64,000 bases of DNA, taken from Enterobacter hormaechei subsp. hoffmannii (GTDB lineage: Bacteria; Pseudomonadota; Gammaproteobacteria; Enterobacterales; Enterobacteriaceae). A program made the position numbers and the translations under genes. Where the stretch lies: positions 1,302,001 through 1,366,000 of the forward strand of contig NZ_CP017186.1 in assembly GCF_001729745.1 (NCBI RefSeq), in the 5' to 3' direction. Positions 37,577 to 58,552 of this stretch are shown one piece after another; within the stretch, counting starts at the first letter, position 1, and the number at the start of each line of letters is the position of its first letter. Under the pieces are notes generated by a model that saw only the letters and a program-made list of their open reading frames with translations, was not told the DNA's origin and ran no database searches.

Positions 37577-37652
37577 GGGTCGTTAGCTCAGTTGGTAGAG
37601 CAGTTGACTTTTAATCAATTGGTCGCAGGTTCGAATCCTGCACGACCCACCA
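37577..37652 (+). tRNA. lysT: tRNA-Lys (UUU)
   Basis: A 76-nt cloverleaf with acceptor stem GGGTCGT / ACGACCC, D-arm GCTCAGTTGGTAGAGC, anticodon loop CTTTTAA (anticodon UUU), T-arm GCAGGTTCGAATCCTGC and encoded CCA. First of four identical copies in this cluster; the gene symbol is by position and is provisional. Confidence 0.97.
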
Positions 37653-37679
37653 CTTAAAGCAGTTCCGGCAGTACAGAGT

Positions 37680-37755
37680 GGGTGATTAGCTCAGTTGGTA
37701 GAGCATCTCCTTTACACGGAGGGGGTCGGCGGTTCGAGCCCGTCATCACCCACCA
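37680..37755 (+). tRNA. valT: tRNA-Val (UAC)
   Basis: A 76-nt cloverleaf with acceptor stem GGGTGAT / ATCACCC, anticodon loop TTTACAC (anticodon UAC), T-arm with GGTTCGAGCC and encoded CCA. It sits between tRNA-Lys genes, as in the E. coli lysT-valT-lysW cluster. Confidence 0.97.
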
Positions 37756-37758
37756 CTC

Positions 37759-37834
37759 GGGTCGTTAGCTCAGTTGGTAGAGCAGTTGACTTTTAATCAA
37801 TTGGTCGCAGGTTCGAATCCTGCACGACCCACCA
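37759..37834 (+). tRNA. lysW: tRNA-Lys (UUU)
   Basis: Second copy, identical over 76 nt to the one at 37577, only three bases after tRNA-Val. The gene symbol is provisional. Confidence 0.97.
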
Positions 37835-37875
37835 ATTTTATTGGTTCCGAGTGATAATTCAGGCAACACCCGAAT

Positions 37876-37951
37876 GGGTCGTTAGCTCAGTTGGTAGAGC
37901 AGTTGACTTTTAATCAATTGGTCGCAGGTTCGAATCCTGCACGACCCACCA
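37876..37951 (+). tRNA. tRNA-Lys (UUU)
   Basis: Third copy, identical over 76 nt to the first. The E. coli cluster has a second tRNA-Val (valZ) before this position; it is absent here, and the 41-base spacer shows no remnant. Confidence 0.97.
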
Positions 37952-37982
37952 GCCTGAATAGATTTGAAGTACATCCCGTAAG

Positions 37983-38058
37983 GGGTCGTTAGCTCAGTTG
38001 GTAGAGCAGTTGACTTTTAATCAATTGGTCGCAGGTTCGAATCCTGCACGACCCACCA
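37983..38058 (+). tRNA. tRNA-Lys (UUU)
   Basis: Fourth identical copy; last intact tRNA of the cluster. Confidence 0.97.
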
Positions 38059-55821: not shown

Positions 55822-57105
55822 TTACTGCTTCGGTTCAGCAACCACTTTGCTACCCAGACCGCGGTTGTTGTATTCCCACATGCGGTTGAAGTTAGCGTCG
55901 TTCAGGTTACGCTGCACGTTGTCTTTATCATCCACCGTGCCGATGTTGCCGGAGAAAGGACGTTTCGAGATCGCCGCATCCGCCCACGGTTTCGCCATGT
56001 TAAAGCCTTCGTTAATCACGCTGTCGCGGATCACGACCTGGCCGTTAGTGGCGGAGTCCACGTCCAGAGAGCGGCCAAGCTGCGCCACGCCATCGCCAGC
56101 AGCAGTAAAGCGGCTATTCACGGCCAGGAAGCCATAGAACAGGTTAGACTGCGTGGCCGGGGCAAAGACGTAACCTTCCTGCTGCGTACGTGAATTCACC
56201 ACGCGGAAGTCGGTGTTATCAAATACCACCGCGCCGCGACCGGAGACCATATCCACGTCGCCTTCAATGTAGCTGTTGGTGACCAGAGTACGCGTCAGAC
56301 GATTGTTCTGAAGGGTATTCTGCACGCCGCTGTTGGTCACGAAGAAGGTATTCTGGCGGCCCAGGATATTGACGTTGTTAATCTGTACCTTGTCGCCATC
56401 GCTACGCAGCGCCACGGCCTGGTGATTACCTGCGTCAACGCTGTCGCCCAGGGTGTTCTGAATGGTCAGGTTCTGCAATTGCAGGCCGTTGTTCTGTGAC
56501 CAGAATACCGCCGAGCACATCACGCCAATGGTGGCGGCACGTTTGCGCTGGCAGTTATCAAACATATACCACGCCGGTTTACCTGGCATGTATTTACCGG
56601 CCGGGTTCACCAGATGGCGCCAGGTGGTGCTGTCGATCTCTGAATCAATCGCCAGGCCAATTTTCACGTCGACCGCTTTTTCGCCAAGTCCGTAAAGCGT
56701 AATGCTTCCCGGTGCCGCCGGAACATAAACGGTTCCTTCGTATTCACCCGGCAGGATGGCAATGTACTGACGAGATGCGCTGTGTTTGGTGATTGCGGCA
56801 TCAACAGCTGCCTGAATTGAGGTGTGCGTAACGCCCTCTGCTCCGGCCGGGCCGACAACGAAGTCTGGCTGTTTCGGCAGGTTAATAGAAGAAGGCGTCC
56901 ATGGGGCTGCATTGGGATCCATCGCCGAGAAATAGTGGGCACGGGTGAAGTTCTTCGCTTCAGCCGCTGACAGGATCGGACGGGAAGCGGTGCCCGGAGC
57001 AACCTGCTCAGAAGGTTGCTGATCCGGTGGTGTTGAACTGCAAGCGGATAAAGTCACGCCAAAGGCGAGTGCCAACGCCAGACGGGAAATCCTGGAAATA
57101 TTCAA
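55822..57105 (-). CDS. ybhC: YbhC, outer-membrane lipoprotein of the pectinesterase family (acyl-CoA thioesterase activity)
   Basis: The 427-residue precursor matches E. coli YbhC in length. It has a lipoprotein signal (MNISRISRLALALAFGVTLS then AC, lipidated Cys22) and a right-handed beta-helix domain of pectinesterase type, with the motifs GPAGAEGVTHTSIQAAVDAAI, GRQNTFFVTNSG and YIEGDVDMVSGRGAVVFDN, the last near the catalytic Asp region. E. coli YbhC lacks clear pectinesterase activity and is annotated as a thioesterase-like protein; the natural substrate is not established. In E. coli it also flanks the lambda attachment site. Confidence 0.94.
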   Translation of the reverse strand: MNISRISRLALALAFGVTLSACSSTPPDQQPSEQVAPGTASRPILSAAEAKNFTRAHYFSAMDPNAAPWTPSSINLPKQPDFVVGPAGAEGVTHTSIQAAVDAAITKHSASRQYIAILPGEYEGTVYVPAAPGSITLYGLGEKAVDVKIGLAIDSEIDSTTWRHLVNPAGKYMPGKPAWYMFDNCQRKRAATIGVMCSAVFWSQNNGLQLQNLTIQNTLGDSVDAGNHQAVALRSDGDKVQINNVNILGRQNTFFVTNSGVQNTLQNNRLTRTLVTNSYIEGDVDMVSGRGAVVFDNTDFRVVNSRTQQEGYVFAPATQSNLFYGFLAVNSRFTAAGDGVAQLGRSLDVDSATNGQVVIRDSVINEGFNMAKPWADAAISKRPFSGNIGTVDDKDNVQRNLNDANFNRMWEYNNRGLGSKVVAEPKQ

Positions 57106-57151: not shown

Positions 57152-57174
57152 CCTGCTTTTTTATACTAAGTTGA
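57152..57174. other. attB: Lambda-type attB site, unoccupied
   Basis: The 15-bp lambda core GCTTTTTTATACTAA is present in full at 57155-57169. The flanks also match E. coli attB (CCT before; TTGAGCG after), with one change, C to G, directly after the core. It sits just upstream of ybhC, the same place as attB in E. coli K-12. No integrase or prophage is present. Confidence 0.9.
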
Positions 57175-57268
57175 GCGAAACGGGAAGATAAAAACGGGAA
57201 AAGTTGCATTTTTGCCCGCAGGCGACGGGAAAGTCATCACAAATAAATAACATTTTCCTGCAAGGCGG

Positions 57269-57308
57269 TTGACAGCAGGTGACAGATGAAAATAAATGTC
57301 TATACAAC
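57269..57308 (+). promoter_or_regulatory. hutIGC promoter with HutC operator
   Basis: A perfect -35 TTGACA (57269-57274) is followed at 17 bases by ATAAAT (57292-57297). TGTCTATACAA (57297-57307), a half-conserved copy of the operator before hutU, overlaps the probable start point, so HutC should autoregulate this operon. The site covers ATG 57296, which argues against that codon as the hutI start. Confidence 0.65.
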
Positions 57309-57328
57309 CCATGACAAGCGGAAGGCAC

Positions 57329-58552
57329 ATGCAGCAGCTTCATCCCGATGATGTGATATGGCGAAATGCGCGACTGGCGACCCTGGCGACAGGTGAGCCG
57401 GAACCCTACGGCCTGAAAGAACAACATGCCCTCGTCGTGCGCGGCCAGACGATTGCGGCCGTTATTCCTGAAGCCGAGATCCCCTCCGGGCATCGTCAGT
57501 GTGTCGATCTCGACGGGCGTCTGGTTACTCCCGGCCTGATCGATTGCCACACCCATCTGGTGTTCGGCGGCGATCGCGCAGCGGAATGGGAGCAACGGCT
57601 TAACGGCGTGTCGTATCAGACCATTAGCGCGCAGGGCGGCGGTATTAACGCCACGGTCACGGCGACCCGCAACAGTTCGCCGGAAATGCTCCTGACGGTG
57701 GCGCAGCAGCGGCTCCAGCGGCTGATGAATGAAGGCGTAACGACCATTGAAATCAAATCGGGATACGGACTGAACGTCCAGGCCGAAGAGAAAATGCTGC
57801 TGGTTGCCCGCCAGCTCAGCCTGAACAATCTGGTCGATATCAGCCCGACGCTGCTGGCCGCGCACGCCGTTCCTGCCGAGTACCGACAGGATCCGGATGC
57901 CTATCTCACGCTGGTCTGTGAGCAGATCATGCCCACGCTGTGGCAAAAAGAGTTATTTGAAGCGGTGGACGTGTTTTGTGAAAACGTCGGCTTTACCCCG
58001 GTGCAAACCGAGCGCCTGTTCCGGGCCGCCGCCGCGCTCGGGATCCCGGTAAAAGGGCATGTAGAGCAACTGTCGAATCTGGGCGGCGCGGCGCTGGTCA
58101 GCCAGTATAAGGGGCTGTCGGCCGATCATATTGAGTATCTCGATGATGCAGGTATTCAGGCGATGGCGCAAAGCGGCACGGTGGCGGTATTGCTCCCCGG
58201 CGCGTTCTATTTTCTTCAGGAGCGCCAGCGTCCACCGGTGGCGCAGCTCAGAGAGCAGGGCGTGCCGATGGCGGTGGCTACCGACTACAACCCGGGCACC
58301 AGCCCGTTTGCCAGCCTGCATCTGGCAATGAACATGGCCTGCGTCCAGTTTGGCCTCACGCCGGAAGAGGCCTGGGCTGGCGTGACGCGGCATGCGGCGC
58401 AGGCGCTAGGTCGTGGCGCGACGCACGGGCAGTTAAAGCCCAGTTATGTGGCTGATTTCGTCGTCTGGGAGGCGAATCATCCGGTTGAGATGGTTTACGA
58501 GCCGGGGCGGAATCCTTTATATCAACGCGTGTTTCGGGGGCAGGTAGCATGA
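57329..58552 (+). CDS. hutI: Imidazolonepropionase
   Basis: HutI opens the ring of 4-imidazolone-5-propionate to N-formimino-glutamate, step three of histidine breakdown. The 407-residue amidohydrolase begins [19 protein letters not shown]. The metal motif is [13 protein letters not shown] (about 71-83), with [28 protein letters not shown] (metal His) and [10 protein letters not shown] (catalytic Asp). The start at 57329 has a GGAAGG ribosome site 6 bases upstream; an upstream ATG (57296) would add 11 residues but lies in the operator. It overlaps hutG by four bases. Confidence 0.96.

What the first reader, a model, noticed from the sequence alone, without database searches (positions are those of the whole stretch)
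57152..57174. Intact lambda-type attB with perfect core, and a B' arm closer to Int consensus than in E. coli
The full 15-bp lambda core GCTTTTTTATACTAA is present next to ybhC, where attB lies in E. coli, although the strain does not look like E. coli. The one flank change (C to G just after the core) turns the B' site on the opposite strand into CAACTTAGT. This fits the core-type Int consensus CAACTTNNT better than E. coli's CAAGTTAGT. The site is empty here, so this genus is a potential host for lambdoid phages using this integrase specificity.
Basis: partly seen in the sequence, partly recalled or inferred. Interest (0 to 1): 0.75.

Follow-up and report, generated by a model that had tools for sequence, protein, structure and literature searches.

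The report
Lambda's landing site, ancestral version
The DNA site where phage lambda inserts itself in E. coli is an old element beside the gene ybhC shared by many related gut-type bacteria, and E. coli's copy, not this one, is the odd version, apparently matched by a one-residue change in lambda's own integrase.

Summary
The 15-bp lambda core is real and exact (57155-57169), between ybhC and the hut operon, and the site is empty. It is not peculiar to this strain: the site is present and empty in 60 of 61 genomes of the genus. In a YbhC-anchored family survey the host base after the core is G in 93 and C in 13 of 106 scorable genomes. E. coli is the exception: C in 5059, T in 64, G in 1, A in 0 of 5426 complete genomes. 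So E. coli's C is most likely derived, and the window's B' site equals C' of lambda attP. Prophages with lambda-type integrases sit at this site in Citrobacter-like and Cedecea hosts and, one end seen, a Buttiauxella-like host; Salmonella phages carry a near-identical attP core. Those integrases have Asp99; lambda and the E. coli prophage integrases examined have Asn99. A published selection points to N99D as the switch of lambda Int towards sites with a C-to-G change, inferred here to be this base (PMC10863862). Two Asn99 prophages in G-type Escherichia show a preference, not a lock. The new point is the natural base-residue pairing; recombination was not tested.

The parts
57155..57169 (+). 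15-bp lambda-type attB core GCTTTTTTATACTAA
   Evidence: read directly; exact match; same place in 60 of 61 genomes of the genus
57160..57166 (+). 7-bp overlap TTTATAC in which strands are exchanged (definition recalled)
   Evidence: identical in 106 of 112 alignable YbhC genomes; in Cedecea colo the attL has host GCATT and the attR phage GCTTT beside this overlap
57153..57161 (+). B core-type Int site CTGCTTTTT
   Evidence: read; site definition recalled
57165..57173 (-). B' core-type Int site CAACTTAGT, identical to C' of lambda attP
   Evidence: lambda attP (J02459) reads core + GTTGG; site definition recalled
57170..57170 (+). Discriminating base: G here, C in most E. coli; 4th base after the overlap
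   Evidence: HK022 attB in K-12 also has G at this register
57158..57187 (+). Conserved ~30-bp element TTTTTATACTAAGTTGAGCGAAACGGGAAG upstream of ybhC, probably its promoter or operator (inferred)
   Evidence: genus-weighted conservation profile over 36 genera
55822..57105 (-). ybhC, TTG start
57329..58552 (+). hutI, followed by hutG, hutC, hutU and hutH

Best explanation
The site is the host half of a lambda-type integration system in what is most likely its ancestral enteric form. About 30 bp upstream of ybhC is held in place across the family by a host function (most likely ybhC expression; inferred). A family of phages with lambda-type integrases has used it as attB in several genera. The right-hand core site (B') usually carries G on the + strand (CAAC on the other), and the integrases of that family outside E. 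coli carry Asp99, the residue that is thought to read this base pair. In E. coli the base became C (T in a few lineages, B and C strains among them), and the lambda lineage carries Asn99, which fits C. Lambda's attP kept G in its C' site, so lambda attP matches this Enterobacter site better than it matches E. coli attB. Shown by sequence: the element, the base distribution, occupied sites in other genera, the residue split. Inferred: that residue and base co-adapted in nature, and that an Asp99 integrase would use this site better than lambda's.
For: Base: of 118 YbhC genomes 112 have an alignable element; leaving out 6 whose right half is a phage end, the host base is G in 93 and C in 13 of 106, with 29 of 36 genera G only. 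G in 68 of 68 named contigs found with a pattern open at this base but needing the exact core, and in 60 of 60 matches in the genus. E. coli: C 5059, T 64, G 1, A 0 of 5426. Integrases: of 59 distinct lambda-type proteins, 46 have Asn99, all 91% or more identical to lambda's; 8 have Asp99 with lambda-type residues 283 and 319; 3 are HK022-type and 1 is another type, all Asp99; 1 has a gap at 99. attR base and integrase from one contig or genome, 18 pairs chosen because both ends were in hand: C/Asn 11, T/Asn 2, G/Asp 3, G/Asn 2. Tree of 19 chosen proteins: the 7 Asn99 rows group together (94/98) among Asp99 rows. Use: both prophage ends in a Citrobacter-like host (L263, L266, one contig) and in Cedecea colo (L228, L286, one contig, about 46 kb apart); one end in a Buttiauxella-like host (L012). 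Salmonella phages SI5 and 29485 have attP with 14 of the 15 core bases, then GTTGAACG. Mechanism: PMC10863862, sections 14 (first part) and 15 and found passages.
Against: Two Escherichia genomes (SCPM-O-B-8794 and E1V33) hold Asn99 integrases with G-type attR, the two ends lying on different contigs, and lambda's own C' site is G-type, so Asn99 tolerates G. On the tree Asn99 arose once, so the association is one event, not many; the grouping is just under the tree tool's mark and the root is a midpoint. C also occurs in six other genera of the sample, for which I found no lambda-type prophage at the site. The ybhC tree does not resolve where in Escherichia the base changed. In the paper the large changes were measured with N99D together with H329R and other substitutions. 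Which base it boxed is not readable in the held text; I infer it from HK022 attB and from the neighbouring bases named in the text. HK022 attB also differs C to G at the outermost left base, so that inference is not certain.
Confidence: 0.7

Rival explanations
1. Neutral difference: the base varies between G and C by drift or for ybhC regulation, and Asn99 in the lambda lineage is unconnected or simply more permissive.
For: C appears in seven of 36 genera; Asn99 integrases accompany G-type attR in two Escherichia genomes; the Asn99 change looks like a single event.
Against: Residue 99 is the residue that a laboratory selection changed together with a C-to-G change in the site (PMC10863862). 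Of 44 distinct integrases with an E. coli-type ybhC flank, 43 have Asn99, 1 has a gap there and none has Asp99; of 8 distinct Asp99 lambda-type integrases 6 have another flank or attP and 2 have no att data.
Confidence: 0.2
2. Conserved promoter only: in Enterobacter the core survives as ybhC upstream DNA and has no history as an attB there. This concerns the genus, not the base-residue pairing, and can be true together with the best explanation.
For: Conservation extends over about 30 bp; none of 60 genus genomes is occupied; no integrase above 40% identity among those passing E 1e-60 in 61 genomes; no viral contig has an exact Enterobacter-type attL.
Against: The identical 38-bp sequence is occupied in a Citrobacter-like host, so the DNA is competent in a relative; one genome per species is a thin sample of prophages.
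Confidence: 0.35
3. Scar: the G was brought in by a lambda-type phage whose attP carries G, through imprecise excision or gene conversion.
For: Lambda attP has G at this position.
Against: The base lies outside the 7-bp overlap, and G is the only state seen in 29 of 36 genera.
Confidence: 0.02

Closest known systems
Lambda attB of E. coli
   Same: exact 15-bp core, 7-bp overlap, position beside ybhC
   Different: G instead of C at the 4th base after the overlap; hut operon instead of ybhB and bioA on the other side (E. coli gene order)
Phage HK022 attB (beside torS) and integrase
   Same: G at the same register; Asp99 in the integrase
   Different: different overlap (AGGTGAA) and different residues at 282, 283, 287, 319 and 329
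Laboratory lambda Int variants C4, C6 and C7 with N99D (PMC10863862)
   Same: Asp99 paired with a C-to-G change in the att site
   Different: selected in the laboratory with other substitutions (E174K, E218K, I43F, E319G, D336V and others; C6 and C7 also H329R); the natural Asp99 integrases at this site keep E319 and H329

Membership tests
Lambda-type attB | 15-bp common core identical to lambda attP | tested here: met
Lambda-type attB | position next to ybhC | tested here: met
Lambda-type attB | two inverted core-type Int sites around a 7-bp overlap | tested here: met
   (site definitions recalled)
Lambda-type attB | same site occupied by a prophage with a lambda-type integrase in relatives | tested here: met
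   Citrobacter-like host, Cedecea colo, Escherichia
Lambda-type attB | occupied within the window's own genus | tested here: not met
   0 of the 60 genus genomes that have the site; not a requirement for an attB
Lambda-type attB | recombines with attP through Int and IHF | not testable with these tools
   needs an in vitro assay
HK022-type attB | overlap AGGTGAA | tested here: not met
   overlap is TTTATAC

The most novel reading that the evidence does not exclude
E. coli's lambda attB is an escaped version of the family's site: changing the base under Int residue 99 weakened its use by the resident Asp99 phages, and two E. coli phage lineages answered differently. Lambda kept the site and changed Asp99 to Asn; HK022 kept Asp99 and moved to another site that still has G at that register. 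The textbook attB would then be a derived allele in a host-phage contest, and lambda attP a record of the older host site.
Probability: 0.25. Interest if true: 0.82.

Novelty: new variant of a known kind. Interest (0 to 1): 0.6.

Why it matters
Lambda integration is the model of site-specific recombination and has been studied with E. coli's attB. If that site is a derived allele, its deviating B' arm and lambda's Asn99 are local adaptations, not the basic design. The pairing gives a natural one-base, one-residue recognition rule that can be tested with existing enzymes, and it would help predict which integrases use which enteric chromosomes.

Tried and rejected
Second site in the genome: GCTTTCTTATACTAAGTGG at G000:C1:1508461 looked like a possible secondary site, but near matches are at the level of the control pattern, so I dropped it. 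Excision scar: rejected because the base is outside the overlap and G is the general state. Tree of ybhC in Escherichia: too poorly resolved to place the change. A Citrobacter-type integrase was not found at E 1e-110 in 17 genomes of genus g24, and at E 1e-120 only 3 of 392 family genomes had a relative of lambda Int, so intact lambda-type prophages are rare outside E. coli in one-genome-per-species data. Four genomes with attL-like right halves (G238, G105, G323, G121) carry only partial or broken integrase pieces without residue 99 in the alignments, so they were not used for the residue count. Sigma-70 scan: two weak hits, neither on the ybhC strand within the conserved element. Rows left out of the base count: 6 of 118 YbhC genomes with no alignable element (4 of genus g107, 1 of g12, 1 of g35) and 6 whose base after the core is a phage's; the cut of at most 7 mismatches is mine. 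About 302 of 5426 E. coli genomes matched none of the four 40-base queries and were not examined. Passages of PMC4880445 gave no contact for residue 99. Papers: the listings showed none on this natural pairing of base and residue, but most subscription journals are not held; the older HK022 specificity work is recalled, and the one paper I asked for by DOI was not held.

It also took the genus sites as empty from a single-copy match, which would not exclude every attR; now show it for all 60. I lowered the best explanation from 0.72 to 0.70 because the paper's large effects combine N99D with other substitutions.

Full report
What is there. The window reads ...AGCCT-GCTTTTTTATACTAA-G-TTGAGCGAAACGGGAAG... 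with the core at 57155-57169. ybhC starts at 57105 on the minus strand and hutI at 57329 on the plus strand. The hut genes lie where E. coli has ybhB and bioA. Nothing lies between ybhC and hutI but the intergenic DNA, so the site is empty. The exact core occurs once in the genome; looser matches are at the level of the reversed control, 8 against 9. Of the 68 named records in hand, the closest over 3 kb are Enterobacter (94.5% to E. cloacae M-7, 92.9% to E. quasihormaechei).

How general it is. In the genus as the genome collection draws it, 60 of 61 genomes have the site, all with G after the core and one copy each. In all 60 the start of YbhC lies 48-51 bp from the core and host DNA follows on the other side, so all are empty. 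In the family sample 89 of 392 genomes match core plus NTTG with at most one mismatch. To avoid selecting on the site itself I located YbhC first: 118 of 392 genomes have it at E 1e-140, and I fetched the DNA upstream in all 118. In 112 the element is alignable (at most 7 mismatches over 24 bases, my cut); the exact core is in 57 and the overlap TTTATAC in 106 of these. Six of the 112 have a phage-like right half. In the other 106 the host base after the core is G in 93 and C in 13; 29 of 36 genera have only G. Conservation is high from core position 4 to the end of the stretch examined, position 33, which goes beyond the core-type Int sites (recalled), so a host function probably keeps it; which factor binds is unknown.

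E. coli is the exception. With 40-base queries that can only seed when the base is right, 5059 of 5426 complete E. coli genomes have C, 64 have T, 1 has G and none has A. Of the 60 T rows listed about two thirds are recognisable B, BL21 or C laboratory derivatives. Among 12 Escherichia genomes 10 matched: 7 with C (4 of these as CTTT) and 3 with G. All 68 named species contigs found with a pattern open at this base have G; that pattern needs the exact core, so it is not a random sample. Lambda attP itself has G: its C' site is the window's B' site, letter for letter.

Who uses the site. A prophage in a host whose flanks match Citrobacter has both ends on one contig (L263, L266); its host site is identical to the window over 38 bp. 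Cedecea colo has an attR (L228) and, about 46 kb away on the same contig, an attL with an integrase 69% identical to lambda's (L286). Its two ends differ just outside the overlap in the way strand exchange there predicts. A viral contig with a Buttiauxella-like flank (L012) has an attL and an integrase 71% identical. Salmonella phages SI5 and 29485 have attP with 14 of the 15 core bases followed by GTTGAACG, and integrases 68% identical. In the window's genus 7 of 61 genomes have an integrase at E 1e-60 or better, all at 39-40% identity, and an exact Enterobacter-type attL pattern had no hit in viral contigs. In the family sample only 3 of 392 genomes had a relative of lambda Int at E 1e-120.

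The residue. I extracted 192 loci with lambda-type integrases, 59 distinct proteins; some loci are the same contig fetched twice. Forty-six distinct proteins have Asn99, all 91% or more identical to lambda's; one has a gap there; 8 have Asp99 with lambda-type residues 283 and 319; 3 are HK022-type and 1 is of another type, all Asp99. The 8 come from Citrobacter-like, Cedecea-like, Buttiauxella-like and SI5-type phages. Of the 44 distinct proteins with an E. coli-type ybhC flank, none has Asp99. I paired attR base with integrase for 18 contigs or genomes, chosen because both ends were in hand: C with Asn 11, T with Asn 2, G with Asp 3, G with Asn 2. The last two are Escherichia genomes whose two prophage ends lie on different contigs. 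On a tree of 19 chosen proteins the 7 Asn99 rows form one group (94/98, just under the tool's mark), next to HK022 and among Asp99 rows (midpoint root). So Asp99 is the likely older state, and the change to Asn happened once.

Why residue 99. I read section 14 (first part), section 15 and found passages of PMC10863862. There, directed evolution of a lambda Int variant gave N99D among other substitutions. Purified C7 (N99D and H329R added to C3) recombined two new target sites 345 and 1097 times better than C3; C6 and C7 recombined attB 13 and 6.3 times less well. Adding N99D alone, or reverting it, moved activity the same way in end-point tests that the authors word cautiously. Their simulations place Asn99 on the guanine paired with the key attB cytosine, and Asp99 on the cytosine of the changed pair. 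They note that HK022's attB shares the cytosine-to-guanine change. The figure that boxes the base is not held, and the att sequences I looked for are not in the text. I place it at the base after the core because K-12's HK022 attB reads AGGTGAA-AAAGGTTG, with G at the 4th base after the overlap, and because the neighbouring adenine and guanine that they name fit TAAG. HK022 attB also differs C to G at the outermost left base, so this remains an inference.

Conclusion. The integrases found at this site outside Escherichia carry Asp99; lambda and its E. coli kin carry Asn99. That natural pairing is the new point. It rests on what looks like one change in the phage lineage and on published biochemistry, it has two exceptions, and it has not been tested here by recombination.

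Noticed in passing
E. coli genomes: 64 of 5426 E. coli genomes carry T, not C, at the base after the lambda core; about two thirds of the 60 rows listed are B, BL21 or C laboratory derivatives.
   Followed up: partly
57158-57187: A conserved ~30-bp element upstream of ybhC in most genera sampled; its binding factor is unknown.
   Followed up: partly
L536, L537, L538, L539: Partial or broken lambda-type integrase pieces and attL-like ends next to ybhC in four further genomes (two of genus g46, which includes a Salmonella diarizonae record, one of g66, which includes Cedecea colo, one of g62).
   Followed up: partly
phage record MW057783: A record named Campylobacter phage CJLB-4 has lambda att and integrase at 100% identity, perhaps lambda contamination or mislabelling.
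   Followed up: no
57298-57309: TGTCTATACAAC just before hutI resembles a HutC operator (motif recalled).
   Followed up: no
37577-38058: Cluster of five tRNA genes, Lys-Val-Lys-Lys-Lys.
   Followed up: no
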